22,712 nt of DNA. Source: a virus. Both the position numbers and the translations under genes were made by a program. The stretch is from positions 1 to 22,712 of the IMG/VR virus record IMGVR_UViG_3300042881_004347. One strand, given 5' to 3'. How positions within the stretch are numbered: position 1 is the stretch's first letter; each line of letters opens with the position of its first letter. Shown here in pieces: positions 248 through 16,898 of this stretch. A model generated the notes under the pieces. It saw nothing but the letters and a program-made list of their open reading frames with translations, was not told the origin of the DNA and ran no database searches.

Positions 248-2233
248 ATGACAAAGGCTACAAACTTAAGAAAAAGCTGGATCGGTGGAGCTTCGAGAGT
301 AACAACGACTTTTAATGCTCCAGGAAGTTTAACACTTCCATATGGGCAGTTTAAGGGGACTGTCTCTGGTCGTGCTGGAACAGGTAACGACCCAGTTGCA
401 GCGACATATAGCATCACTTATGCTACCAATTATAATATTGCCTATCCGATCGCAAATCAGCCGATCGCAAACCAACCAGCGACTGCATATACAATCAATT
501 ATAACACCAATTATAATGTCGCATATCCAATCGCTAACCAGCCGATCGCAAACCAACCAGCGACTGCGTTTACTACAAATTATAACACCAATTATAACAC
601 TGTCTACCCAATCGCAAATCAACCAGAAGCATCAAGACCCGTAACTGCATACTCTACGAATTATAACGTTGCTTATCCGATAGCAAATAGACCAGAAGCT
701 GCAAGACCAGCGACGGCATACTCTACGAATTATAACACGAACTATAATGTTGCGTATCCAGTTGCTAACCAACCAGCAACTTCGTATTCTATTCTTTATA
801 ATACCAATTATAATGTTGCGTATCCAGTTGCTAACCAACCAGCAACTGCGTATTCTATTCTTTATAATACCAATTATAATGTTGCGTATCCAGTTGCCAA
901 TCAACCAGAAGCATCAAGACCTGTAACTGCGTATTCTATTCTTTATAATACCAATTATAATACTGCGTATCCAGTTGCCAATCAACCAGAAGCATCTAGA
1001 CCAATAACTGCTTATAGTACAAATTATAACACTGTGTATCCAGTTGCAAATCAACCAGAAGCATCTAGACCAATAACTGCTTATACTACAAATTATAATA
1101 CAGTTTATCCAGTCGCGAATCAGCCACTTGCAAACTATAATCCAGCAACTTCGTTTAACTGGAATTATGTGTATTATTTTGCATATGAAAATAATGATTA
1201 TTATGAAACAGGATCTGGTAGCACTCCAGGGTGCCCATCTCCATTTAGTTTCTATGATTTTATGAACTCTGAATATACTGAGAGTAATTATTCTTGCACA
1301 CCTGCAGGAAATAATGCAAATTATAATACCAATTATAATGTCGCATACCCAGTCGCGAATCAACCAGCAACTGCATATTCTATTCTTTACAATACAAACT
1401 ATAACGTTGCATACCCAGTCGCGAATCAACCAGCAACTGCATATTCTATTCTTTACAATACAAACTATAACGTTGCGTATCCAGTAGCCAATCAACCAGA
1501 AGCATCTCGTCCAGCGACTGCATATTCTATTCTTTATAATACAAATTATAACACTGCCTATCCAGTCGCGAATCAACCAGAAGCATCAAGACCTGTGACT
1601 GCATATAGTACAAATTACAACGTTGCTTATCCAGTTGCCAATCAACCAGAAGCATCAAGACCTGTAACTGCGTATACTACAAATTATAATACTGTGTATC
1701 CAATTGCAAATCAACCGATTGCAAATCAACCAGCGACTGCATACACAATCAATTATAACACCAATTATAACATCGCGTATCCAATTGCAAATCAGCCAGC
1801 AACTGCGTATTCTATTCTTTATAATACCAATTATAATGTCGCGTATCCAGTTGCAAATCGACCAATTGCAAATCAACCAGCGACTGCATACACAATCAAT
1901 TATAATACCAATTATAATACTGTCTATCCGATCGCCAATCAACCAATTGCAAATCAACCAGCGACTGCGTTTACTACAAATTATAATACCAATTATAACA
2001 CTGTCTACCCAATCGCAAATCAGCCAGAAACTGGTCGACCAATAACATCATATACTCCAGGTAATCCTGGCGCATCTACAACTGTTCTTGGTGTATTTTT
2101 CCCAGGAGGAGCAGTTTCTACTCTTGCTCCGACTGTAAGTCCAACTTTGGTCGACTATGAACGATTCCCTGATAATGCAAACTATCCCGTGGCAGTGCCT
2201 CCAGGTGGTCAGATCGTAATTAAGATTGAATAA
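248..2233 (+). CDS. Tyr/Asn/Pro-rich tandem-repeat virion protein, probable fibre
   Basis: This 661-aa protein has three parts. Residues 1-57 form a non-repeated head with the stretch FNAPGSLTLPYGQF. Residues 58 to about 603 are degenerate repeats built on YNTNYNVAYPVANQP, with linkers PATAYSIL, IANQPATAY or EASRPVTAY. The last 58 residues are a Gly/Pro/Val-rich tail ending in NYPVAVPPGGQIVIKIE. A 64-residue island (residues 294-357) interrupts the repeats; it is rich in aromatic residues and holds the only obvious cysteines, C329 and C350. There is no signal peptide and no membrane segment. Similar head and tail modules are, from memory, common in virion proteins of marine T4-like phages. 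The position upstream of fibre genes and the late promoter support a structural role, probably an elongated fibre or adhesin. The exact role is unknown. Confidence 0.7.
   Translation: MTKATNLRKSWIGGASRVTTTFNAPGSLTLPYGQFKGTVSGRAGTGNDPVAATYSITYATNYNIAYPIANQPIANQPATAYTINYNTNYNVAYPIANQPIANQPATAFTTNYNTNYNTVYPIANQPEASRPVTAYSTNYNVAYPIANRPEAARPATAYSTNYNTNYNVAYPVANQPATSYSILYNTNYNVAYPVANQPATAYSILYNTNYNVAYPVANQPEASRPVTAYSILYNTNYNTAYPVANQPEASRPITAYSTNYNTVYPVANQPEASRPITAYTTNYNTVYPVANQPLANYNPATSFNWNYVYYFAYENNDYYETGSGSTPGCPSPFSFYDFMNSEYTESNYSCTPAGNNANYNTNYNVAYPVANQPATAYSILYNTNYNVAYPVANQPATAYSILYNTNYNVAYPVANQPEASRPATAYSILYNTNYNTAYPVANQPEASRPVTAYSTNYNVAYPVANQPEASRPVTAYTTNYNTVYPIANQPIANQPATAYTINYNTNYNIAYPIANQPATAYSILYNTNYNVAYPVANRPIANQPATAYTINYNTNYNTVYPIANQPIANQPATAFTTNYNTNYNTVYPIANQPETGRPITSYTPGNPGASTTVLGVFFPGGAVSTLAPTVSPTLVDYERFPDNANYPVAVPPGGQIVIKIE
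419..2056 (+). repeat. Tandem coding repeats, 66-base core period
   Basis: The basic unit is 66 bases (22 codons, TATTCT...): copies start at 785 and 851, and the next at 932 is 15 bases longer because it carries an EASRP insertion. Similar near-identical pairs occur around 1375-1500. A unique island at 1127-1318 splits the array. High DNA identity between neighbouring copies suggests recent expansion or ongoing homogenisation. Confidence 0.8.
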
Positions 2234-2296: not shown

Positions 2297-2899
2297 ATGC
2301 CATATCCAGTGCAACGTTATGCTCGTGTTCTAAATCGTTTTTGTGTCGCTACAAAAGCATTTACCAAAGAAGAAGTAGAAAAAATTTTTGCTCTTGAAGA
2401 CTTGCAAAAGTTTCAAAAAGGCGCAATTGGTGGTGGTGCAGGAAAGGGTCAGGTTAGCAAGAAAAACCGCGACAGTGACGTCATGTGGGTGATGCATGAC
2501 CAAAACTCTGACTGGCTTTACCAAAAATTCTCAGGTTTAGTTTCTGCAGTCAATTATGATCATTTCATGTATGATGTTGAAGGTTTTGAGAACTTTCAAT
2601 ATACAGTTTATCGATCTAAAGACAAGCAGCACTATGATTGGCATATCGATGCTGGAAATACATCAAGCCCATTTGAACGCAAGATTAGTGCATCATTAAT
2701 TCTTACCGATCCAAGTAAGTATGAAGGCGGTGAATTCGAATGTGTGATGAATGGTCGTGTTGATGAGCCTTTTGTTGCAAAAGCAGAAATTGGTGATGTG
2801 ATTTTCTTTGATTCTCGCATGCCTCATCGTGTGCGTCCAGTCACCTCTGGTGTTCGTAAATCATTAGTATGTTGGATTATGGGCAAGAACACATGGTAA
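2297..2899 (+). CDS. PKHD-type Fe(II)/2-oxoglutarate dioxygenase
   Basis: This 200-aa protein is a likely soluble Fe(II)- and 2-oxoglutarate-dependent hydroxylase of the prolyl-4-hydroxylase-like (PKHD/YbiX) group. The iron triad is visible: H116 and D118 in HYDWHIDAG, and H177 in RMPHRV. R187, ten residues further on, is placed to bind 2-oxoglutarate. EGGEFE (143-148) and AEIGDVIFFDS (163-173) are the usual core strands of the double-stranded beta helix. GAGG-type Shine-Dalgarno (GAGG, 2285-2288) lies 8 bases before the ATG. The gene is headed by a consensus sigma70 promoter and overlaps the next gene by 7 bases. Substrate is unknown: protein prolines of the neighbouring fibre proteins are one option, and host proteins, nucleic acid or small molecules are others. 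The enzyme class is clear; the target is not. Confidence 0.88.
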   Translation: MPYPVQRYARVLNRFCVATKAFTKEEVEKIFALEDLQKFQKGAIGGGAGKGQVSKKNRDSDVMWVMHDQNSDWLYQKFSGLVSAVNYDHFMYDVEGFENFQYTVYRSKDKQHYDWHIDAGNTSSPFERKISASLILTDPSKYEGGEFECVMNGRVDEPFVAKAEIGDVIFFDSRMPHRVRPVTSGVRKSLVCWIMGKNTW

Positions 2900-3633
2900 A
2901 TCTAAAAAAACTTAGATTTTGGGATAATCCAATAATTGAGTTTTATTGCCACCCAGAACTTTATGGAATTATTCCTGAGCCAAAAGCAGCAGTAAAGAGT
3001 CTGCCTGACTGGTTTAAGAATTTAGAGCCAACATTTGGTGATGGTAGTAATAGAGATACATTTGGCAATAAACCCATGTCTGCTAAAAAATGCCTTCCGC
3101 TATTAGATGGAATGTCTTTAGGATTCACTATTCCGTTATGCGGCGATGTGCATGTAAGATCAAACTATAACAATAGTCAATTTGATATAAGAAATCCTCC
3201 AGGTATCAAAGTTTGTGAATTTCATGATGCCAATCAAGTTGGTGGAAATAGTGGAATTAAATTAAATCATGGCAATCCTTTGAAATTCCTCAATCCATGG
3301 GTTGTTAAAACAGCTCCAGGGTGGTCTGCATTGTTCATCAATCCAATGAACAATTATGAACATCCATTTACATGTTTGAGTGCAATGGTAGATACAGACA
3401 AGTATCCAAAAGAAGTAAACTTTCCTGCTCTATGGCATGAAAATGATTCTGACTATCACATTCCTGCAGGAACACCATTAGTTACAGTTATTCCAATTAA
3501 ACGAAATTCGTTTGAAAAGAAACCTCGCGTTCGATCAATGTCACCAAAAGAATTCAAAGAGATTTCTGTAATACAAAAACGACAAAATATGCGCACACAT
3601 CATTATACCTATGATTTGAGAGAGAAGAAATAA
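2893..3633 (+). CDS. Unknown-function protein, DUF6065-like (paralogue 1)
   Basis: The 246-aa product begins at ATG 2893, which overlaps the upstream stop (ATGGTAA). An in-frame ATG at 2869 would add eight residues but lies deeper inside the oxygenase gene and has no ribosome binding site. The N-terminus has FYCHPELYGIIPEP and LPDWFKNL, and the C-terminal half has PWVVKTAPGWSALF, MVDTDKYPKEVNFP and IPAGTPLVTVIPIKR. This pattern resembles phage proteins that I recall as DUF6065; that name is from memory. The PAGTPL..VIP ending recalls a cupin-like beta fold. There is no membrane segment. The next gene is a diverged relative. Location between an oxygenase and a glycosyltransferase suggests a part in the same process, but no activity can be assigned. 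Confidence 0.7.
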   Translation: MVNLKKLRFWDNPIIEFYCHPELYGIIPEPKAAVKSLPDWFKNLEPTFGDGSNRDTFGNKPMSAKKCLPLLDGMSLGFTIPLCGDVHVRSNYNNSQFDIRNPPGIKVCEFHDANQVGGNSGIKLNHGNPLKFLNPWVVKTAPGWSALFINPMNNYEHPFTCLSAMVDTDKYPKEVNFPALWHENDSDYHIPAGTPLVTVIPIKRNSFEKKPRVRSMSPKEFKEISVIQKRQNMRTHHYTYDLREKK

Positions 3634-3635
3634 TT

Positions 3636-4370
3636 ATGTTTAATTTTCTTAAAAAAGATAAACCCGATCTTGAATTTATAGATTCATCTGAGGTAGTGTA
3701 TCCTCACTATCCACCAATTCTTGCAAAAGATTTAAAGCCTTTAAAAGAGCATCAAGAAAAAAAGTTTGAGAGTTATATCTTTCCACAATGTCCTGGAATG
3801 CATGATTATTCTAGAATGGGTTATATAATTCCAGCATGGAGTAATTTTCATATCAAAGCAAACAAGGCTGGTTGCGTTGCATTTTTGGGTAGCGATGGTG
3901 AAAATAGAGATAAACGAGGCACTCCATTAGGTCAACCACAAAATATGGATGTGAAAATTACTGATGGTTTATTTAAACTTAATGGTGTCGATCCTTGTAT
4001 TTGGAATTTTCCAGGTGCATGGAAAGTTTTTGGCAATGGGAATGTTTCAGCATTAGTCATGCCAGCATTTTTTCATTCAACATTTTTAGATGATCTTTAT
4101 GTTTATCCAGGAGTAGTAGATTATAATAAATTTACAACGCTTAATTTTATATGTTCACCGAAACATGAATGCGAAGTTCAGATTAAAGCTGGCGATCCAA
4201 TATTGCATGTGATTCCTTTTATAACCAACAAAGATATTGTTGCAAGTTATGGTCCTGCATCAAAAGAACAAAAGGACTATCCTAAAACAATTAAATGGTT
4301 TCATGAATTAAATTTCTATAGAAAATACTATATGATTCGTAAAAAATATAAGATAATTAAAAAGAGTTAA
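3636..4370 (+). CDS. Unknown-function protein, DUF6065-like (paralogue 2)
   Basis: This 244-aa protein starts two bases after the previous stop, with a purine-rich GAGAGAAG stretch upstream. It keeps the plan of the preceding protein: a proline-rich entry, PGAWKVFGNGNVSALVMP in place of PGWSALFINP, VVDYNKFTTLNF in place of MVDTDKYPKEVNF, and IKAGDPILHVIPF in place of IPAGTPLVTVIPI. Overall identity is low outside these blocks, so the duplication is old. The N-terminal 30 residues and the lysine-rich C-terminus (KKYKIIKKS) are unlike the relative. Function is unknown. Its place in the oxygenase-glycosyltransferase cassette suggests co-expression with those enzymes. Confidence 0.7.
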   Translation: MFNFLKKDKPDLEFIDSSEVVYPHYPPILAKDLKPLKEHQEKKFESYIFPQCPGMHDYSRMGYIIPAWSNFHIKANKAGCVAFLGSDGENRDKRGTPLGQPQNMDVKITDGLFKLNGVDPCIWNFPGAWKVFGNGNVSALVMPAFFHSTFLDDLYVYPGVVDYNKFTTLNFICSPKHECEVQIKAGDPILHVIPFITNKDIVASYGPASKEQKDYPKTIKWFHELNFYRKYYMIRKKYKIIKKS

Positions 4371-4375
4371 CACTG

Positions 4376-5338
4376 ATGGCAAAAATCTTCGTAAACATTT
4401 GTTCATATCGAGATAAATTACTCGCACCGACTCTCTATAGTTTGTTGGAAACTGAGTCTGGACGAAACGCTATTACATATGGAGTTTTCGAACAAACAAA
4501 AATCGAGGATAGTTTGCAAACAACACATCCTGATCTTGTCAATCATAAACAAATTCGATATAAACGAATTGATCCACAATTTTCTGATGGAGTTGTTTGG
4601 GCACGATGTATTAATTCGATGCAAATTTATGATGAAGATTTCCAGTATCAGATAGATTCTCATATGTTATTTGATAAAGATTGGGACAATCAATTGATAC
4701 TTGATTATAATGATGCATGTAAAGTGGCTGGGAAAAATAAAGTAGTTTTAACTTCTGGCACAAAAAATTACGATCTAGAAAATGAAAGAATCATTAAACA
4801 CACCTTAACTGATGATATTACTGTCAAGTTAGGTTATTTTCAATTCGATAAGGATCTAAGATTGCATGCTCATGGTGCATGGGTTCCAGCAACAGAGCGA
4901 GTTACTCCATCAATTCATATCTGCGCTGGCAACTTTTTCATGCCTGTAAGTTGGATCAAAGACGTTGGATACAATACAAAGATATTTTTTGAAGGCGAAG
5001 AACAGATTTTTGTTATTAGTTCAATTCTTGCTGGATATAGCATATTCCATCATCGCAAGATTAAAGTATATCATTATCTTCGATCTGGTAGCCATGACAC
5101 CAAACAAACGATTAATCCTGTTGCCAGCTCAGAAAAATTAAAGATGAATCACGATCGATCTAAGAAAGAGATCATTGATTACATCTATTCTCTATCCGAG
5201 GAACAGCTCGAACACTATCGTCGCATAACAGGTGTCGATTATATAAATAGAAGACTAGAGGATCGTGCAATTTCTCGTAAAATCTCTCCCAATCCTGGAA
5301 TTGTAAATGATTGGGAGGTGTCAAATAGAGATGGTTAA
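4376..5338 (+). CDS. GlcNAc-transferase-like glycosyltransferase
   Basis: This 320-aa protein resembles the GlcNAc-transferase family (PF11397), whose eukaryotic members add GlcNAc to hydroxyproline of Skp1. Family-like features are the start KIFVNICSYRD (residues 3-13), VVWARCINSM (73-82), the YQIDSHMLF block (91-99) with a D-x-H metal/nucleotide site, HICAGNFFMP (181-190) and FFEGEEQIF (204-212) followed by VYHYLR. The fold would be GT-A and cytosolic. The ATG follows the upstream stop by 5 bases with AGAG in range. The gene ends TAAATG, directly against the next start. The family link to hydroxyproline glycosylation is suggestive, given the hydroxylase in the same operon, but the acceptor here is unknown and could be a fibre, a host glycan or DNA. 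Confidence 0.8.
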   Translation: MAKIFVNICSYRDKLLAPTLYSLLETESGRNAITYGVFEQTKIEDSLQTTHPDLVNHKQIRYKRIDPQFSDGVVWARCINSMQIYDEDFQYQIDSHMLFDKDWDNQLILDYNDACKVAGKNKVVLTSGTKNYDLENERIIKHTLTDDITVKLGYFQFDKDLRLHAHGAWVPATERVTPSIHICAGNFFMPVSWIKDVGYNTKIFFEGEEQIFVISSILAGYSIFHHRKIKVYHYLRSGSHDTKQTINPVASSEKLKMNHDRSKKEIIDYIYSLSEEQLEHYRRITGVDYINRRLEDRAISRKISPNPGIVNDWEVSNRDG

Positions 5339-5905: not shown

Positions 5906-6241
5906 ATGGCGCAATTTGTAGAAGTAGATCTAGATCAAGGAACAACCTTTAATCTTGATATTGTAGTTAAGAACGATGATGGCAGCAGAATTAATGTTGC
6001 AGGCTACACATTTTCTTCCTCAATGCGCAAATCATTTTATTCTTCAAGTGTGACAGCAAATTTAACCGTTGCAGTGATTGATGCTGCGAATGGTGATGTT
6101 AGATTTTCGCTAAATGCAGCGTCAACTGCTAACATAAAAGCAGGTCGTTATGTGTTTGATATCAAACAAATTAATACTTCAAATGTTACATCGCGTATGT
6201 TTGAAGGGATTATTACAGTTAATCCACAGGTAACGAAATGA
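5906..6241 (+). CDS. Small beta-sandwich virion protein (BppU-N-like), upstream of fibre
   Basis: This 111-aa protein starts [27 protein letters not shown] and continues with [44 protein letters not shown] and [14 protein letters not shown]. The order of strands (opening strand, modified-residue strand, 'G-x-Y-x-F-D' strand, closing 'EG.I.V.P') resembles small Ig-like phage baseplate or fibre-attachment domains such as the N-terminal domain of BppU. That is a pattern resemblance only. Its stop overlaps the start of the collagen-like gene as ATGA, so the two are translationally coupled. It is likely an attachment or accessory protein of that fibre. AGGAA at 5893-5897 supports the start. Confidence 0.7.
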
Positions 6242-9200
6242 CGACAATTTCAGTTTCATCCACTGCTGGTCCACAAGGTCCACAAGGTCCACAAGGTTCT
6301 ACTGGTAACATTGGTCCACAGGGTCCACAAGGATCAGTTGGTCCACAAGGTCCACAAGGTCCATCTGGTTCTACTGGTCCACAAGGTCCATCTGGTGCAC
6401 AAGGTGCTGCGTCAACTGTTGCTGGTCCTCAAGGACCACAAGGACCACAAGGTGCTGGTCCACAAGGACCACAAGGACCACAGGGTGTAACTGGTGCACA
6501 AGGTCCATCTGGTCCACAAGGTGTCGCTGGTCCATCTGGTCCACAAGGTGATACAGGTCCTCAAGGTCCTCAAGGTGTCACTGGTGCACAAGGACCACAG
6601 GGTGCAACTGGTCCACAGGGTCCTCAAGGTGTCACTGGTGCACAAGGACCACAAGGTGTTGTTGGTGATACTGGACCACAAGGTCCGCAAGGTGTCACTG
6701 GTGCACAAGGTCCACAAGGACCACAAGGTCCGCAAGGCGTCACTGGTGCACAAGGTCCATCTGGTGCTCAAGGTAATCAAGGTGCACAAGGCATTCAAGG
6801 TTTAACAGGTGATACTGGTCCACAAGGTCCTCAAGGTCCTCAAGGTGTTGCGGGACCACAAGGTCCACAAGGTGTCGCTGGTCCACAGGGTGTCGCTGGT
6901 GCACAAGGTCCATCTGGTGCTCAAGGTAATCAAGGTGCACAAGGCATTCAAGGTTTAACAGGTGATACTGGTCCACAAGGTCCACAAGGTGTCGCTGGTC
7001 CATCTGGTCCATCTGGTCCACAGGGTGTTGCTGGTCCACAAGGTCCATCTGGTGCTCAAGGTAATCAAGGTGCACAAGGCATTCAAGGTTTAACAGGTGA
7101 TACTGGTGGACAAGGTCCATCTGGTCCATCTGGTCCATCTGGTCCACAAGGTGTCGCTGGTCCACAAGGTGTCGCTGGTGCACAAGGTCCACAAGGTGAT
7201 ACAGGTCCATCTGGTCCATCTGGTCCACAAGGTGTCGCTGGTCCACAAGGTGTCGCTGGTCCACAAGGTCCACAGGGTGATACAGGTCCACAAGGTCCTT
7301 CTGGCGTGTCAAATGTTCCTGGTCCGCAAGGTCCACAGGGTGATACAGGTCCTCAAGGTCCTCAAGGTCCACAAGGCGTCACTGGTCCACAAGGTCCATC
7401 TGGTGCTAAAGGTGATCAGGGTGAATTTGGTGGCGCAACTTTTGAATACATCTACTTAACAGACACAGCAAACACAGATCCTGGTGTAGCAAATTTAAAA
7501 TTCGATAATATAACATTTTCTTCTGTATCACGATTGTATATCGACTTTACAGATTTAAGTACTGCAAACGTATTTAATTATTTACAAACTATTGATGACT
7601 CTACGTCAACAATCAAAGGAACATTTAAAGTTTCAAATACTGCAAATGTAAGTGAATTTGCATACTTTAATATTAATGGATCTCACGAACACGTTTCAAG
7701 TTATTTCTCTGTTCCTGTTGCACATTTAAGTGGTGTTACAAGTTTTTCAAATTCTACCAATGTCATCATCACATTTGTTCGCACAGGTGATAAAGGTGAT
7801 ACAGGTCCACAAGGTCCACAAGGTCCACAAGGTCCACAGGGTGCTGGTCCACAAGGTCCACAAGGTCCACAGGGTCCCCAAGGTCCACAGGGTCCCCAAG
7901 GTCCCCAAGGTCCCCAAGGACCACAAGGTGTCACTGGTGCAAGAAATTACACTGTAACGAATAGTGGTGCCAGTCATTATGTGATTGATGGCGCAAATGA
8001 TCCTACATTGTATTTGATGCGCGGATTCACATATGAATTCTTTGTAAGTGCATCTGGACATCCTTTCTGGATCCAAACAGTTCCTGCGCCATACAGTGTT
8101 GGAAATGTTTACAGTAGTGGTGTAACAAATAATGGTGACGATGTTGGCACTGTAATATTTGCGGTTCCATATAATGCACCAAATACTCTTTATTATGTTT
8201 GCCAAAACCATTCTTCAATGTCTGGTACAATTGTTATCAGTGATGTGGGTCCAGTTGGTCCTCAAGGTCCACAAGGTGTAACTGGTGATACAGGCAATCC
8301 TGGACCACAAGGTCCAACTGGTCCAGGTGGTAATACTGGTGCACAAGGTCCACAGGGTGTTGTTGGTCCACAGGGTCCACAGGGTCCACAAGGTCCAACT
8401 GGCGCAGATTCAACAGTTGCTGGTCCTCAGGGTCCATCTGGTCCATCTGGTGCTCAAGGTAATCAAGGTGCACAAGGCATTCAAGGTTTAACAGGTGATA
8501 CTGGTCCACAAGGACCACAAGGTCCACAAGGTCCACAAGGTCCTCAAGGTGATGCATCAAGTGTTGCTGGTCCACAAGGTCCACAGGGTCCATCTGGTGC
8601 ACAAGGTAATCAAGGCGCACAAGGTTCACAAGGCATTCAGGGTTTAACAGGTGATACTGGTCCACAAGGTCCATCTGGTCCACAAGGTGCTGCATCAAGT
8701 GTTGCTGGTCCACAAGGACCACAGGGTCCGCAAGGTTCTACTGGTGACACAGGACCAACAGGTCCACAAGGACCACAAGGTCCACAGGGTGCTGGTCCAC
8801 AAGGTCCGCAAGGTCCTCAAGGTGATGCATCAACTATTGCTGGTCCACAAGGACCACAAGGTCCACAAGGACCACAAGGTGCTGCGTCAAGTGTTGCTGG
8901 TCCACAGGGTCCACAGGGAGCAATTGGTCCGCAAGGTCCGCAGGGCGTCACTGGTGCAAGAACATATACAGTGACGAATGTCGGAGCTGGTGCATATCAA
9001 ATCGATGGTTCTAGCAATCCAACATTAAATTTACTGCGTGGATTTACTTATGAATTTAGTATAAGTGCTTCTGGACACCCTTTCTGGATTCAAACAGTTT
9101 CTGGTGCATATAGTTCTGGAAATATATATTCATCAGGCATTACAAATAACGGCACTCAAGTTGGAACGCTAACATTCGCTGTTCCTTATGATGCACCAAG

Positions 9201-10722
9201 TACTCTTTATTATGTTTGCCAATTCCACGCATCGATGCAGGGTATAATTAATATTAGTGATGTTGGTCCTATTGGTCCACAAGGTCCACAGGGACCACAA
9301 GGACCACAAGGTTCAATTGGATCAACTGGTGATGTTGGTCCTCAAGGTCCGCAAGGTCCGCAAGGTCCACAGGGTCCGCAAGGTGCTGGTCCTCAAGGTC
9401 CACAAGGACCACAAGGTGATGCGTCAAGTGTTGCTGGTCCGCAAGGTCCACAAGGTCCACAAGGTCCACAAGGTGTCACTGGTGCACAGGGTCCACAAGG
9501 TCCACAAGGTGTCACTGGTGCACAGGGTCCACAAGGTCCACAAGGTGTCATTGGTGATACAGGACCACAAGGTCCTCAAGGTGTGACTGGTCCTCAAGGT
9601 CCTCAAGGTGATACAGGTCCACAGGGTCCTCAGGGTCCACAAGGACCACAAGGTGTTAAGGGTGACACTGGTGACTTTGGTGGTGCAACGTTTGAATATA
9701 TCTTCAATACCAATACAGCAAATACTGATCCAACAGCTGGCTATGTCAAGTTCAATAATACAACATTGCTATCTGCGACTGAGATGTATATTGATAACAT
9801 CGATCGTTTAAGTGGAAATGTTTTCAATTACTTGAATACAATTGATGACTCAACATCAACAATCAAAGGCACGTTCAAGATTGCAAATTCTGCAAATGTT
9901 CTAGAATACACATTCTTCAATATTAACGGTACTCATCTTCATGTTGCTGATTGGTTCGTTGTTCCTGTTGCAGGATTGAACTCAACATTAACTGGCTCGA
10001 ACTTCTCAAATAGCACAAATGTGATTATGACATTTGTTCGTACTGGTGATAAAGGTGATGCAGGTCCACAAGGTCCACAAGGTCCACAAGGTCCGCAAGG
10101 TGTCACTGGTGCACAAGGTCCACAAGGTCCACAAGGACCACAAGGTCCGCAAGGTGTCACTGGTCCACAGGGTCCACAGGGTCCACAAGGTGTCATTGGT
10201 GATACAGGACCACAAGGTCCACAAGGTGTGATTGGTCCTCAAGGTCCTCAAGGTCCTCAAGGTCCACAAGGTGTCACTGGTGCACAAGGACCACAAGGTC
10301 CACAAGGTCCTCAAGGACCACAAGGTCCTCAAGGTCCTCAAGGCAACACAGGTCCAACTGGACCAAATGAAGGTGCAACGCTTAAAGCTGTAAAAGACTT
10401 TATGGTTTCGAATACAAACACTAATGGCGCAAATACTGTCAGTCTTACAACTGCTAACTATTTCCGTCATACATTAACAGCAAATGTGACATTTACATTC
10501 ACGGATGCACCATCTTCTGGAACAGGTCAAATGTTCTCGCTATTATTGTCGCAAGATGGAACTGGTGGAAGATTGCCATCATTCTCCAATACAATTTATT
10601 GGGCTGGTGGATCTATTCCTCCTGCGACAACAGATGCAAATGCTCGTGACTTGTGGACATTTATCACATATGATGGTGGTACGACATATTGGGGCACTTT
10701 GACTATGAAGGACCTTCGATAA
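6238..10722 (+). CDS. Collagen-like fibre protein with two cupredoxin-like domains
   Basis: The 1494-aa protein has five Gly-X-Y blocks, mostly GPQ with GVT, GAQ, GPS and GDT: residues 11-397, 517-567, 671-906, 1010-1147 and 1270-1376. Four globular inserts separate them in A-B-B-A order. A (398-516, 1148-1268) starts GGATFEYI and ends [10 protein letters not shown] (568-670, 907-1009) is cupredoxin-like, with H608/C655/H658/M661 and H947/C994/H997/M1000. The C-terminal 118 residues (1377-1494) resemble phage fibre tips ending with a 'DGGTTYWG' strand. Collagen-like phage fibres form trimers, so a long trimeric fibre is expected. The only lysines in collagen blocks are four Y-position K-G-D sites beside A domains. 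The ATG overlaps the upstream stop; AGG at 6228-6230 is its ribosome binding site. Receptor and fibre position are unknown. Confidence 0.9.
6763..6819 (+). repeat. 57-base identical direct repeat, copy 1
   Basis: This stretch encodes the series [19 protein letters not shown]. It is identical at every base to copies at 6916-6972, 7051-7107 and 8449-8505; a diverged relative begins near 8596. Confidence 0.85.
6916..6972 (+). repeat. 57-base identical direct repeat, copy 2
   Basis: Identical to copy 1; the 15 bases upstream are also shared with copy 1, so this pair forms a longer repeat. Confidence 0.85.
7051..7107 (+). repeat. 57-base identical direct repeat, copy 3
   Basis: Identical to copy 1. 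The triplet after it is GGQ rather than GPQ, the only such break after this repeat. Confidence 0.85.
7939..8247 (+). other. Cupredoxin-like domain B1 coding segment
   Basis: Residues 568-670 of the fibre protein. The candidate type 1 copper ligands are H608 (SGHPFW), C655, H658 and M661 ([10 protein letters not shown]). The 47-residue H-to-C gap equals that of plastocyanin (H37 to C84), and C-x2-H-x2-M equals amicyanin (C92, H95, M98). Metal binding is predicted, not shown. Confidence 0.65.
8449..8505 (+). repeat. 57-base identical direct repeat, copy 4
   Basis: Identical to copy 1 although it lies more than 1.3 kb away, across domains A1 and B1. This is consistent with recombination between collagen blocks. 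Confidence 0.85.
8956..9264 (+). other. Cupredoxin-like domain B2 coding segment
   Basis: Residues 907-1009 of the fibre protein, a diverged duplicate of B1. H947, C994, H997 and M1000 ([10 protein letters not shown]) keep the same spacing while surrounding residues vary, which favours a functional site. Confidence 0.65.
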
Positions 10723-10759: not shown

Positions 10760-11755
10760 ATGAAAATACATGTGTTAGCAAATCCGCGCAATCCTACTGG
10801 GTTGATGAATCGCGTTGATCCATTTGCAGTTCATGCACACAAGTATATCAAACATTTGTCTCAACATTTCCATATGATTCATTATGGAGTTCCAGGCGCA
10901 CAAGTCGACTGCGAGCATGTCGACATTCCAACAACACCAGTTGAAATTAACGAATTTAATTTGTTAGCAGGTAAAGAGATTCAAGAGCGAGCAAGCACAG
11001 GCGATATTATCGTTTGCTTTTTTGGTGTGGATAATAAAGTTGCTTGTGATATGAATCCTGGATGTAAAATTGTTGAACCATCAATTGGATATCGCGCCAA
11101 TGGCGTGTTTGCTCCATATAGAGTATTCACATCATATGCAAACATGCATTATTTTTATGGTGATCGTGACATGTTAATGTCGCCAAGCTGGTTCGATGAT
11201 GTAATCGGCAATCCATTTACAGTAAGTGAATTTGAATATAGTGAAAAGAAAGAAGATCATTTCTTGTATTTTGGTAGAGTGTGTGAAGAAAAAGGTGTAC
11301 ATCTAGCCATTCAAGCAACAGAAAAGATGGGCAAGAAACTCGTCATCGCTGGTCCTGGATCGTTGCAAGCATTAGGTTATGATAGAATACCAAATCACGT
11401 TGAAATGTTTGGCGTTGCAAATGCAGAGCAGCGAAAACAATTGATGAAAAATGCAAAGTGTTTGTTTGGACTAACACACTATGTTGAACCATTTGGTAAT
11501 ATGATCATTGAAGCAAATCTTTCTGGTACACCTGTGATTACAACTGATTGGGGTGCATTTCCAGAGATTGTTCTCGAGGGGAAAACAGGATATCGAGTGA
11601 GGGATTTCAAATCACTATTAAATGCTATGAATTTAATAGATAAAATAGACTTGTGCGATTGTCGATCATGGGGATTAAATTTCTCTGACGAAGTTATTCA
11701 CATGAAGCATAAGCAATACTTAGATAAAGTTATTTTAAATTCATTTTATGCGTAA
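10760..11755 (+). CDS. GT-B glycosyltransferase (GT4-like)
   Basis: This 331-aa protein has the two-domain GT-B pattern. The C-terminal nucleotide-sugar half shows YFGRVCEEKGV (170-180), KLVIAGPGS (193-201), VEMFGVAN (214-221), and the E-x7-E motif E243-P-F-G-N-M-I-I-E251, followed by GTPVITTDWGAFPEIV and GKTGYRV. These mark a retaining transferase of the GT4 type, cytosolic and without a membrane anchor. Length is slightly short for the family. No strong Shine-Dalgarno is seen before the ATG. The gene overlaps the next by 8 bases. The sugar donor and acceptor are not visible; fibre protein, lipopolysaccharide and DNA are all possible acceptors. Confidence 0.85.
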   Translation: MKIHVLANPRNPTGLMNRVDPFAVHAHKYIKHLSQHFHMIHYGVPGAQVDCEHVDIPTTPVEINEFNLLAGKEIQERASTGDIIVCFFGVDNKVACDMNPGCKIVEPSIGYRANGVFAPYRVFTSYANMHYFYGDRDMLMSPSWFDDVIGNPFTVSEFEYSEKKEDHFLYFGRVCEEKGVHLAIQATEKMGKKLVIAGPGSLQALGYDRIPNHVEMFGVANAEQRKQLMKNAKCLFGLTHYVEPFGNMIIEANLSGTPVITTDWGAFPEIVLEGKTGYRVRDFKSLLNAMNLIDKIDLCDCRSWGLNFSDEVIHMKHKQYLDKVILNSFYA

Positions 11756-12507: not shown

Positions 12508-13065
12508 ATGAAAACTACTTTAATTATTGTTGACGACTTTTATCAAAACCCTGATCAAGTAAGAGCATATGCTCTGTCACAACCATTTGAAGTCTCTGGA
12601 AACTATCCTGGAGTTCGAACAAAGCCATGGCTTCCTGATGATTTAAGGAATTCTCTTCAATACATTATACAAAATGCGGGTGGTCAAATCACTAATTGGT
12701 TTGAAGAATCTGGATATACTGGCGCGTTTCAAATCTGTACTGCTCAAGACAGAACATGGATTCATGCTGATAGTTTTAATACTTGGGCAGCTGTTTGTTA
12801 TCTGACACCAGATGCACCACTTTCTTCTGGAACTGCCTTGTATCGATGGAAAGAAACAAAAGAATATGAAAGGATCGATCGCGATGCACCATATCATGAT
12901 GGATACGATTACACTAAATGGGAAAAGACAGATTATGTTGCAAACAAATATAATCGAATTGTGCTGTATCGTGGAAACTTATATCATGCATCGTTAGACT
13001 ATTTTGGCAATAATTATCAAAATGGTCGATTGTTTCAAACCTTTTTCTTTAATACAGAGTACTGA
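12508..13065 (+). CDS. Fe(II)/2OG oxygenase-like protein (DUF6445 type)
   Basis: This 185-aa protein has the triad of an Fe(II)/2OG oxygenase: H86 and D88 in TWIHADSFNTWAAVCYLTP, H160 in YRGNLYHASLDYFG, and R174 in NGRLFQTFFF as the likely 2-oxoglutarate ligand. The arrangement and the 'GTALYRWK' strand resemble proteins I recall as DUF6445. It differs strongly from the PKHD enzyme at 2297, so the window encodes two unrelated-looking oxygenases. It starts 7 bases after the previous stop and overlaps the next ATG by one base (TGATG). Context, between glycosyltransferases, suggests hydroxylation of a substrate that is then glycosylated. The substrate is unknown. Confidence 0.72.
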   Translation: MKTTLIIVDDFYQNPDQVRAYALSQPFEVSGNYPGVRTKPWLPDDLRNSLQYIIQNAGGQITNWFEESGYTGAFQICTAQDRTWIHADSFNTWAAVCYLTPDAPLSSGTALYRWKETKEYERIDRDAPYHDGYDYTKWEKTDYVANKYNRIVLYRGNLYHASLDYFGNNYQNGRLFQTFFFNTEY

Positions 13066-13811
13066 TGAAGATCTTGCATGTAATATTCTCTACGAATCGA
13101 ATCAAGTATCTGATGCCAACTCTAGAGTCTCTAAAAAATCTAGACTATGGCAATCATACGGTTGATAAATTAATTATCGACGATTATCCGAGAAATAGGA
13201 ATCCTGCCATATTTGACCTAATCTCAAAGGTTTATGGTTTTAATTTACGATTTAACGAGACTAACTTGGGTCTATCGGTTAATTGGAGCGCGTTCTTCGA
13301 TTGGTTAAAAACACAAGATTATGACTATATCTTACATCAAGAGGACGATGTTCTATTGACGAGTCCGATTCGAATTGACGACTTGATAACTATTCTAGAA
13401 TCAGATGAAAAAATGGCTTCAGTCGTTCTTCAGCGTCAATCATGGTATTTTCATGAAACTGAACCCGTAATCGATGTTACCGATGTTAAAATTGGAAACT
13501 ATTACTATAGCCAAAATGTAAAAACTTTTCCAATCATATTCTCGCTCTATCGTAAAAATGTGATCGAATATTCGTTTAGAGATTACTGGAAATTTAATGT
13601 AAACGAAGGAATGATCATGGTTTATCTAAATTTCTTCCATCAAATGTATTCTGCAACTTTAAAGGGTCCAGAAGGTCAAAATTTAATCGTTCATATCGGA
13701 GAAGAGACTGTTGGTAAACGACTCGAGCCAGGAGAGCCAAACTGGGAGCAATTCTCTCATATGGACCCAAACAGAGTTTATAACTCTCGAAATGGTAAAT
13801 TAATCGAGTGA
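13065..13811 (+). CDS. GT-A glycosyltransferase (GT2-like)
   Basis: This 248-aa protein begins KILHVIFSTNRIKYLMPTLESL, the usual GT2 opening (strand, then a helix after 'T-x-N/D-R'). LIIDDYPRN (37-45) is the second strand and YILHQEDDVLL (88-98) contains E93-D94-D95, the likely metal-binding DxD equivalent. NLGLSVNW follows the family position for the donor pocket. No membrane helices follow, so it is a soluble transferase. It is the last gene of the cassette, joined to the previous one by TGATG. The next gene begins a conserved morphogenesis operon with its own promoter. Donor and acceptor are unknown. Confidence 0.78.
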   Translation: MKILHVIFSTNRIKYLMPTLESLKNLDYGNHTVDKLIIDDYPRNRNPAIFDLISKVYGFNLRFNETNLGLSVNWSAFFDWLKTQDYDYILHQEDDVLLTSPIRIDDLITILESDEKMASVVLQRQSWYFHETEPVIDVTDVKIGNYYYSQNVKTFPIIFSLYRKNVIEYSFRDYWKFNVNEGMIMVYLNFFHQMYSATLKGPEGQNLIVHIGEETVGKRLEPGEPNWEQFSHMDPNRVYNSRNGKLIE

Positions 13812-16496: not shown

Positions 16497-16898
16497 ATGA
16501 GTGAAGTTGATAAAAATCTCTCTAATATTCTAAACACTGACTATATTCCTGTAGTAAGTGATAAAGAAACTAAATCGATGATTGTTCATCAGGATGATTC
16601 ACAAAATCCTGATGCAGATTACTCGCGTTCTAATTATTACAACCTTATCGAAAGGGGTAATGAGGCTTTGGATGGTATTCTTGAGGTAGCGAGAGAATCA
16701 CAGCATCCACGAGCATACGAAGTAGCAGCCAACATGATTAAGAATCTCTCTGATGTCACAGAGAAACTTATGATTCTTCAACGGCAACAACAAGAATTGC
16801 AACCAAAAGAGCAAGCACCAACAAATATTGCAATTGATAAAGCAGTGTTCATTGGATCTACAGCAGATCTATTGAAGCAAATAAAAAATGAATCTTAG
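16497..16898 (+). CDS. 16: Small terminase subunit gp16
   Basis: The 133-aa product is the likely small terminase (T4 gp16 is 164 aa), the DNA-recognition partner of the packaging motor. It has an acidic N-terminus, then DADYSRSNYYNLIERGNEALDGILEVARESQHPRAYEV, a helical oligomerisation region rich in charged residues, followed by MIKNLSDVTEKLMILQRQQQ. The C-terminus IGSTADLLKQIK resembles the part of gp16 that contacts gp17. The gene overlaps gene 17 by 11 bases. The call rests on pattern and place, between 15 and 17. Confidence 0.85.
   Translation: MSEVDKNLSNILNTDYIPVVSDKETKSMIVHQDDSQNPDADYSRSNYYNLIERGNEALDGILEVARESQHPRAYEVAANMIKNLSDVTEKLMILQRQQQELQPKEQAPTNIAIDKAVFIGSTADLLKQIKNES

What the first reader, a model, noticed from the sequence alone, without database searches (positions are those of the whole stretch)
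7939..9264. Two cupredoxin-like domains with complete copper ligand sets inside a fibre
Both domain B copies keep His, Cys, His and Met (H608/C655/H658/M661 and H947/C994/H997/M1000). The 47-residue His-Cys gap equals plastocyanin and C-x2-H-x2-M equals amicyanin. The ligands are kept while nearby residues differ between copies. A metal site in a trimeric fibre could bring copper or redox chemistry to the host surface, or just stabilise the fold. From memory, similar domains occur in other marine viral proteins, usually without a described function.
Basis: partly seen in the sequence, partly recalled or inferred. Interest (0 to 1): 0.75.

Follow-up and report, generated by a model that had tools for sequence, protein, structure and literature searches.

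The report
Copper-protein modules in a phage fibre
A marine T4-like phage carries, inside a collagen-like tail fibre, two small domains that look like copper proteins such as rusticyanin and plastocyanin; their metal-binding residues are strongly kept across hundreds of relatives and, when lost, are nearly always lost together, which makes a real metal site likely, although copper binding and its purpose are untested.

Summary
ORF 6238-10722 (1494 aa) holds two 72%-identical ~100-residue domains with His-Cys-His-Met at the stated residues; its only two cysteines are these. The AlphaFold2 model of copy 1 (pLDDT 97, pTM 0.89) has a cupredoxin fold: best solved matches are rusticyanin, copper nitrite reductase and laccases (Z 9-11). 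A family profile finds nitrite reductase, plastocyanin and amicyanin sequences first, with Cys, C-terminal His and Met aligned.

In a ligand-blind search of 435 sources, 310 of 339 complete domains keep all four residues. After setting aside 17 divergent rows, His, Cys and His were lost as a set in 9 of 10 cases (165 control triples: at most 39%). The HxH motif elsewhere in this fibre is poorly kept.

So this is very probably a type-1-copper-type cupredoxin module in a collagen-like fibre, from a family widespread in marine phages and present in bacteria. No Pfam cupredoxin model matches the window copies, and nine PMC searches listed no description of it. I favour a metal-locked structural or host-facing module over electron transfer. 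Metal identity, redox activity and benefit to the phage are unshown. The His-Cys gap of 47 is incidental (family range 41-76).

The parts
6238..10722 (+). 1494-aa collagen-like tail-fibre protein carrying both cupredoxin modules
   Evidence: ORF; Pfam Collagen 6.8e-117; best PHROG match phrog_5073 tail fiber protein 1.1e-271
7945..8247 (+). Cupredoxin module copy 1 (residues 570-670)
   Evidence: AF2 model pLDDT 97.2; Foldseek and VIA-align matches to cupredoxins; phrog_677 1.8e-28
8962..9264 (+). Cupredoxin module copy 2 (residues 909-1009)
   Evidence: 72% identical to copy 1; phrog_677 1.1e-27
8059..8061 (+). codon of H608, first ligand of copy 1
   Evidence: conservation
8200..8220 (+). 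C655-x2-H658-x2-M661, ligand loop of copy 1
   Evidence: C-x2-H-x2-M in 309 of 310 intact domains
9076..9078 (+). codon of H947, first ligand of copy 2
9217..9237 (+). C994-x2-H997-x2-M1000, ligand loop of copy 2
7786..7944 (+). collagen-like Gly-x-x stretch before copy 1 (residues 517-569)
   Evidence: segment scan
8248..8961 (+). collagen-like stretch, with short breaks, between the copies (residues 671-908)
   Evidence: segment scan
9265..9687 (+). collagen-like stretch, with a short break, after copy 2 (residues 1010-1150)
   Evidence: segment scan
7438..7785 (+). Domain A copy 1 (residues 401-516), other globular module of the fibre
   Evidence: AF2 pLDDT 96.8; no PDB match at Foldseek E <= 0.001
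9688..10044 (+). Domain A copy 2 (residues 1151-1269)
   Evidence: alignment A4, 64% identical to copy 1
10369..10722 (+). C-terminal domain (residues 1378-1494), like phage tail-fibre proteins
   Evidence: phrog_7760 tail fiber protein 5.8e-12
5906..6241 (+). small upstream gene resembling tail-fibre assembly proteins
   Evidence: phrog_1084 (unknown function) 9.9e-23; phrog_3304 'L-shaped tail fiber protein assembly' 1.9e-14

Best explanation
Each module is a cupredoxin domain with a complete type-1 mononuclear copper site (His, Cys, His equatorial, Met axial) on an amicyanin-length C-x2-H-x2-M loop. Two such modules per chain sit between Gly-x-x stretches of a collagen-like tail fibre; if the fibre is a homotrimer, as collagen-like fibres usually are, each fibre would carry six sites in two rings of three. 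The site most likely binds copper (Cu(I) in the host, or copper from sea water after lysis) and works as a metal lock that stiffens the module, which serves as a spacer, joint or host-facing knob of the fibre, rather than as an electron carrier. Shown by computation: fold, ligand set, strong conservation, loss of ligands as a set, position between collagen stretches. Inferred: that a metal is bound, that it is copper, the trimer, the mechanical or adhesive role.
For: Fold: AF2 model pLDDT 97.2, pTM 0.89 from 59 homologues; 50 PDB chains at Foldseek E <= 0.001, led by rusticyanin, AcoP, three-domain Cu nitrite reductase and plastocyanin; VIA-align Z 10.8 to rusticyanin 2cal (1.9 A over 92 residues) and Z 10.8 to nitrite reductase 2dv6 (2.0 A over 88), whereas domain A of the same fibre reached only Z 6.1 in the same test. 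Sequence: the profile of 67 relatives finds Cu nitrite reductase 9cck at E 1.3e-4, plastocyanin 2plt 0.0027, amicyanin 1sfd 0.014, with Cys, C-terminal His and Met aligned; NCBIfam amicyanin is matched by 6 of 67 members (best 1.9e-6), rusticyanin by 4, plastocyanin by 3. Site: 310 of 339 domains intact in a ligand-blind search; with 17 rows set aside (16 of a divergent group in gp9-query loci, 1 doubtful) and one misaligned row counted as intact, 9 of the 10 domains that lost any of H, C, H lost all three, none lost exactly two, and no one of 165 triples of comparably conserved columns exceeded a ratio of 13 of 33. In two viral scans whose search stretches held no His or Cys ligand (queries L063 and L244, themselves ligand-less), 98 of 102 site-spanning unique domains were intact. 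The state 'lost' needs 8 changes on the best tree, at least 3 forced by supported branches (7 of its 14 'lost' rows are of the set-aside kind). Structural role: 83 of 226 intact viral-contig domains have collagen-like sequence on both sides.
Against: No metal has been measured. In the HMMER alignments to plastocyanin the first His of the family is not placed on plastocyanin's first His ligand; that register rests on the fold match. The residue after the first His is Pro in 309 of 310 domains where plastocyanin, azurin and amicyanin have Asn (recalled), so the second shell differs. No Pfam cupredoxin family is matched by either window copy. One relative lost Cys alone (L319), and the third such scan (query L203, itself ligand-less) found 0 of 4 intact domains. 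The tree gives too few independent cases for a significant sign test (p 0.25). The mechanical or adhesive role is chosen by elimination.
Confidence: 0.6

Rival explanations
1. The site is real but binds zinc or Cu(I) in the host cytoplasm as a plain structural metal, with no type-1 redox copper in the virion.
For: The fibre is made in a reducing, copper-poor cytoplasm (general knowledge); recombinant cupredoxins often load zinc (recalled). Loss of ligands as a set fits any metal.
Against: Cys, two His and Met is the type-1 copper set. Of the 311 domains aligned with H, C and H, 310 keep Met; the exception is a bacterial domain with Gln (L159), a change that still fits type-1 copper (recalled from stellacyanin). 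But Met also stays in all nine domains that lost H, C and H, so its conservation may be partly structural.
Confidence: 0.2
2. Copper carried on the fibre is bait: the phage exploits a host copper-uptake or copper-binding surface protein, the copper analogue of the iron 'Ferrojan Horse' idea.
For: HxH iron sites in tail fibres and the Trojan Horse proposal are in print (PMC11705849, passages read). The domain sits in fibres and in gp9, the baseplate-fibre connector.
Against: A type-1 site holds its metal buried, so it is a poor donor (general knowledge). The domain is also in virion proteins that need not touch the receptor, such as gp9 and a structural protein of S-TIM5. No receptor evidence.
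Confidence: 0.06
3. Electron transfer or redox sensing: the modules exchange electrons with a host surface or respond to redox state to trigger a fibre change.
For: The fold and loop are those of electron carriers.
Against: No electron-carrier or haem-protein family turned up in the window ORFs that were scanned; this is weak, because the record is a 22.7-kb fragment, ORF 16497-16898 was not scanned and 2297-2899 is a 2OG-Fe(II) oxygenase. The modules are tethered in a fibre.
Confidence: 0.05
4. The residues are an inherited relic kept by fold constraints; no metal is bound.
For: No metal measured; sister domains without H, C and H exist.
Against: Fold constraints alone would not make H, C and H disappear together (9 of 10 cases), nor keep them among the most conserved columns at under 45% identity (Met rank 1, second His 3, Cys 4, first His 10 of 95; 29 domains).
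Confidence: 0.09

Closest known systems
Rusticyanin, amicyanin and plastocyanin (type-1 blue copper cupredoxins)
   Same: Fold (VIA Z 10.8 to rusticyanin); His-Cys-His-Met ligands; C-x2-H-x2-M loop as in amicyanin (alignment); profile and NCBIfam matches.
   Different: Pro after the first His in 309 of 310; no match above a curated cut-off for the window copies in Pfam; embedded in a collagen-like fibre; no known redox partner.
Cyanophage gp9 'baseplate wedge tail fiber connector' (phrog_677, T4-GC 398)
   Same: Carries the same domain at its C-terminus (phrog_677 positions 307-410 of 412, E 1.8e-28), with all four ligands in the five gp9 domains read (P-RSM4, S-P4, S-SSM7, ME01, P-RSM6).
   Different: Annotated as a connector, without reference to cupredoxins or copper, in the records seen; not a collagen-like fibre.
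Phage-encoded plastocyanin PetE (cyanophage auxiliary gene)
   Same: Type-1 copper protein encoded by a phage (PMC3037559, passages read).
   Different: PetE is a separate photosynthetic electron-transport protein, not a module of a virion fibre.
HxH iron sites of T4 gp37 and marine phage tail fibres
   Same: Metal site proposed in a phage tail fibre (PMC11705849, passages read).
   Different: Iron held by His pairs in the fibre; here one cupredoxin site within each module. Domain A's own HxH motif is poorly conserved (21 and 19 of 75).
Bacterial proteins with the same domain
   Same: 41-58% identity over the domain in 51 contigs; all four ligands in 64 of 66 domains, one of the others being incomplete and one HCHQ.
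   Different: Many are short and begin like secreted or lipoproteins (by eye, no predictor run), one scanned is CHRD-fused (L135); some of the 51 contigs look phage-derived (L134, L174, L175, by eye).

Membership tests
Cupredoxin fold, type-1 copper class | Greek-key beta-sandwich of about eight strands | tested here: met
   Eight strands in a pLDDT 97 model; cupredoxins lead both PDB comparisons; strand topology itself was judged through these matches only
Cupredoxin fold, type-1 copper class | One His upstream, and Cys-His-Met on the loop between the last two strands | tested here: met
   H608/C655/H658/M661, H947/C994/H997/M1000; model strands 82-87 and 94-100 flank the loop, strand 42-45 follows the first His (residue 40 of the model)
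Cupredoxin fold, type-1 copper class | Ligands conserved as a functional unit | tested here: met
   310 of 339 intact; set loss in 9 of 10 after setting 17 rows aside
Cupredoxin fold, type-1 copper class | Four side chains within copper-binding distance | not testable with these tools
   Model coordinates are not on the script machine
Cupredoxin fold, type-1 copper class | Copper bound, with S-to-Cu charge-transfer band | not testable with these tools
   Needs protein
Pfam PF00127 plastocyanin/azurin family | Match above the curated cut-off | tested here: not met
   No match for either window copy at E <= 1; 5 of 67 relatives match at E <= 0.01, 6 of 59 at E <= 0.05; 0 of 1 own record and 0 of 7 related records
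Amicyanin (TIGR02657) | Match to the NCBIfam model | tested here: not met
   Window copy 1: no NCBIfam match at E <= 0.01; 6 of 67 relatives match
Collagen-like phage tail fibre | Long Gly-x-x stretches and tail-fibre homology | tested here: met
   PF01391 6.8e-117; phrog_5073 tail fiber protein; C-terminal domain phrog_7760
Collagen-like phage tail fibre | Trimeric assembly in the virion | not testable with these tools
   Only single chains can be modelled
HxH iron-binding tail fibre (T4 gp37 type) | Conserved repeated HxH motifs | tested here: not met
   One HxH per domain A, kept in 21 and 19 of 75 relatives

The most novel reading that the evidence does not exclude
Marine tailed phages build working type-1 copper centres into their adsorption apparatus (collagen-like fibres and the gp9 connector), so that virions are copper proteins, and the metal state of the fibre influences adsorption; phage particles would then be part of the ocean's pool of strong copper ligands.
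Probability: 0.3. Interest if true: 0.85.

Novelty: new variant of a known kind. Interest (0 to 1): 0.62.

Why it matters
If the modules bind copper, virions of very abundant marine phages carry copper-protein centres in their host-contact machinery, which would open direct tests of metal-dependent adsorption, of fibre mechanics, and of phages as copper ligands in sea water. It would also put a name on a domain that is annotated only as tail, structural, connector or hypothetical protein in the phage records seen.

Tried and rejected
Chance match of four residues: rejected by conservation and set loss.

Equality of the 47-residue gap with plastocyanin as evidence: rejected; the gap runs from 41 to 76 among 310 intact domains.

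HxH of domain A (H483/H485, H1233/H1235) as a second metal site: rejected as a general feature, 21 and 19 of 75 relatives. Domain A has a confident model but no PDB match at Foldseek E <= 0.001 and a best VIA Z of 6.1; its fold stays unassigned.

Single-sequence searches of PDB sequences led nowhere: window copy 1 (best E 0.76, a WD-repeat protein) and bacterial L137 (best E 0.41, unrelated). A first genome-contig scan with copy 1 alone found no relative.

Gene neighbours of bacterial relatives as a clue to function: six neighbour proteins of three loci (L137, L159, L172) gave only SEC-C and queuosine synthesis above cut-off; nothing on copper.

Counting the divergent group in gp9-query loci (patterns QATH 9, EATA 2, DSSA 2, QASH, QATY, DANR; 16 rows) as set losses: not done, because the first-His column is uncertain there (a His lies one residue on in several); VSDI (1 row) was also set aside; NCHM (1 row) is a misalignment and was counted as intact.

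Print: nine searches for a phage, cyanophage or marine-virus cupredoxin, plastocyanin-like or copper domain gave no listing whose title or shown abstract start describes this domain; only 10 of 19 papers were listed. PMC11705849, PMC9605863, PMC3037559 and PMC4535781 were opened, at passages only. Most subscription papers and all bioRxiv preprints are outside the library.
Full report
WHAT WAS CHECKED. The window is a 22,712-base virus record. It carries a T4-like block: terminase and tail sheath, sheath stabiliser, head-tail adaptor, head closure, tail tube and portal. Among the 12 best rows shown, its portal is 50-52% identical to those of cyanophages and of Pelagibacter phage Mosig, and its terminase 48-50% to those of Methylophilales, Pelagibacter and cyanobacterial phages, so the host is not settled. 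The finding lies in ORF 6238-10722, 1494 aa, mostly Gly-x-x repeats (Pfam Collagen 6.8e-117) with five globular parts: domain A twice, the cupredoxin-like domain twice, and a C-terminal domain like phage tail-fibre proteins.

FOLD. From 59 homologous domains (alignment A2) AlphaFold2 gave a model of copy 1 with mean pLDDT 97.2 and pTM 0.89, eight strands. Foldseek found 50 PDB chains at E <= 0.001, led by rusticyanin, the cupredoxin AcoP, copper nitrite reductase and plastocyanin. VIA-align 2 gave Z 10.8 (1.9 A over 92 residues) to rusticyanin 2cal, Z 10.8 (2.0 A over 88) to nitrite reductase 2dv6, and Z 9.4-9.9 to laccases. The other module of the fibre, modelled equally well (pLDDT 96.8), reached at best Z 6.1 and no Foldseek match at E <= 0.001, so the match is not a by-product of the method. 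The model's coordinates cannot be read by script, so ligand distances are not measured.

SEQUENCE KINSHIP. Single-sequence comparison with PDB sequences gave nothing (best E 0.76 and unrelated). The profile of A2 gave Cu nitrite reductase 9cck at 0.0039 and plastocyanin 2plt at 0.04. The profile of 67 wider relatives (A3; chosen at under 65% identity and only from domains with all four ligands, so its ligand columns are invariant by choice, and the match leans on them) gave 9cck at 1.3e-4, another Cu nitrite reductase at 7.1e-4, plastocyanin at 0.0027 and amicyanin at 0.014, with Cys, C-terminal His and Met aligned. In the plastocyanin alignment the first His does not fall on plastocyanin's own first His ligand; that register rests on the fold. 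NCBIfam: 6 of 67 members match amicyanin (best 1.9e-6), 4 rusticyanin, 3 plastocyanin, 3 halocyanin. Pfam: no match for window copy 1; PF25489 (At5g54830-like) matches copy 2 at 0.0046, below its cut-off. PF25489 is the Pfam model that most relatives touch (22 of 59 at E <= 0.05, best 5.4e-5; 11 of 67 at E <= 0.01, best 3.1e-5); PF00127 Copper-bind is touched by 6 of 59 and 5 of 67.

LIGAND CONSERVATION. To avoid circularity the four ligand columns were masked before building the HMM. Over 435 sources it found 339 unique domains that span the site; 310 have H, C, H, M. The rest: 26 have lost H, C and H as aligned, 1 lost Cys only (L319), 1 has Gln for Met (bacterial, L159), 1 is misaligned (NCHM). 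Of the 26, 16 belong to a divergent group in gp9-query loci where the first-His column is uncertain and 1 (VSDI) is doubtful; these 17 rows were set aside before the set-loss count. Of the remaining 322, first His is lost in 9, Cys in 10, second His in 9, all three in 9, exactly one in 1, exactly two in none. Over 165 triples drawn from 11 columns of 91-95% conservation, the best all-to-any ratio was 13 of 33 and the median 1 of 51, against 9 of 10 for the ligands. The nine losers are QSSM (5), QSTM, YSFM, SSYM and FAVM; some of the QSSM rows are near-copies, so they are not nine events. Met is kept in all nine. A tree on the other columns, of 168 rows (thinned at 80%), 14 labelled lost (7 of them of the set-aside kind), needs 8 changes, at least 3 forced by supported branches; the independent pairs (3 of 4 going the same way for Cys and each His, none the other way) are too few for a significant sign test (p 0.25).

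ASCERTAINMENT. Two viral scans used search stretches that contain ligands, as did the gp9 scan and the genome-contig scan (first His only). Scans seeded with ligand-less relatives, whose stretches hold no His or Cys ligand (that of L063 holds the Met), gave 44 of 46 (query L063) and 54 of 56 site-spanning domains (query L244, 3 more incomplete) intact, and 0 of 4 (query L203). Domains already seen in other loci were counted once only. An earlier round on loci up to L272 gave 122 of 125 viral, 64 of 66 bacterial and 18 of 24 phage-record domains intact. In that set, at under 45% identity to copy 1 (29 domains), Met ranks 1st, second His 3rd, Cys 4th and first His 10th of 95 columns.

WHERE IT OCCURS. 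tblastn finds the domain in 356 phage records, 347 of them named Synechococcus, Prochlorococcus or 'Cyanophage', all at under 60% identity; many of the 60 listed matches lie in genes annotated 'baseplate wedge tail fiber connector' (gp9). I fetched 18 of the 356. In IMG/VR, 483 stretches encode a relative in the first scan, of which 80 were kept. Of 226 intact unique viral-contig domains, 83 have collagen-like sequence on both sides, so the arrangement of the window is a recurring one. 51 bacterial contigs carry relatives at 41-58% identity; many of the proteins are short and begin like secreted or lipoproteins (by eye), and one of those scanned is CHRD-fused (L135). Some of these contigs look phage-derived (L134, L174, L175, by eye). 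BFVD structures match too, 61 at E <= 0.001, including 'Beta-sandwich protein' entries labelled Pithovirus and Marseillevirus.

HOW IT MOST LIKELY WORKS. Shown by computation: fold, ligand set, conservation and joint loss, position in the fibre. Inferred: that a metal is bound (I put this at about 0.8), that it is copper (about 0.7), and that its main use is to lock and stiffen a module which serves as a spacer, joint or host-facing knob (about 0.6). I prefer this over electron transfer because no electron-carrier family turned up in the window ORFs scanned (a fragment, and not every ORF was scanned) and the modules are tethered, and over a copper-bait role because a type-1 site buries its metal; both points are arguments, not tests. 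The loss of all three polar ligands in some sister domains that remain full-length shows that the site can be dispensed with, so where it is kept it is probably selected for.

WHAT IS KNOWN. Iron held by HxH motifs in tail fibres and the Trojan Horse idea are in print (PMC11705849, passages); cyanophages encode plastocyanin PetE as an auxiliary gene (PMC3037559, passages). Nine searches of the PMC library found no listing that describes this domain as a phage cupredoxin. Pro after the first His, in 309 of 310, sets the family apart from plastocyanin, azurin and amicyanin, which have Asn there, and recalls the His-Pro of multicopper oxidases (both recalled).

VERDICT. Observation confirmed; interpretation partly supported; a new variant of a known kind: type-1-copper-type cupredoxin modules used as building blocks of a viral fibre, with the chemistry untested.

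Noticed in passing
window 2297-2899: 2OG-Fe(II) oxygenase (PF13640 1.4e-14; phrog_61 9.9e-32) a few genes before the collagen-like fibre; could be a prolyl hydroxylase for it, although Pro sits mostly right after Gly. One search for print on phage, collagen-like, tail fiber and prolyl hydroxylase gave none.
   Followed up: partly
window 248-2233: 661-aa ORF made of tandem repeats around NYNTNYNVAYPVANQPATAY, with no PHROG match better than E 0.04.
   Followed up: no
window 7438-7785 and 9688-10044: Domain A of the fibre: confident AF2 model (pLDDT 96.8) with no PDB match at Foldseek E <= 0.001 and best VIA Z 6.1.
   Followed up: partly
window 4376-5338, 10760-11755, 13065-13811: Three glycosyltransferase genes around the fibre gene (PF11397, PF00534, PF00535); they may glycosylate the virion or alter the host surface.
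   Followed up: no
window 2869-3633 and 3636-4370: Two neighbouring genes of one family of unknown function (phrog_7084; the first also DUF6065).
   Followed up: no
L258 3310 onwards; ORFs after gp9 in L355-L434: The gene after cyanophage gp9 holds a divergent version of the domain that lacks the Cys in 16 site-spanning cases, while S-SSM6b (L258) keeps all four ligands there.
   Followed up: partly
BFVD entries A0A481Z6J5, A0A481YXP1 and others: Proteins of records labelled Pithovirus and Marseillevirus match the module's fold, several named 'Beta-sandwich protein'.
   Followed up: no
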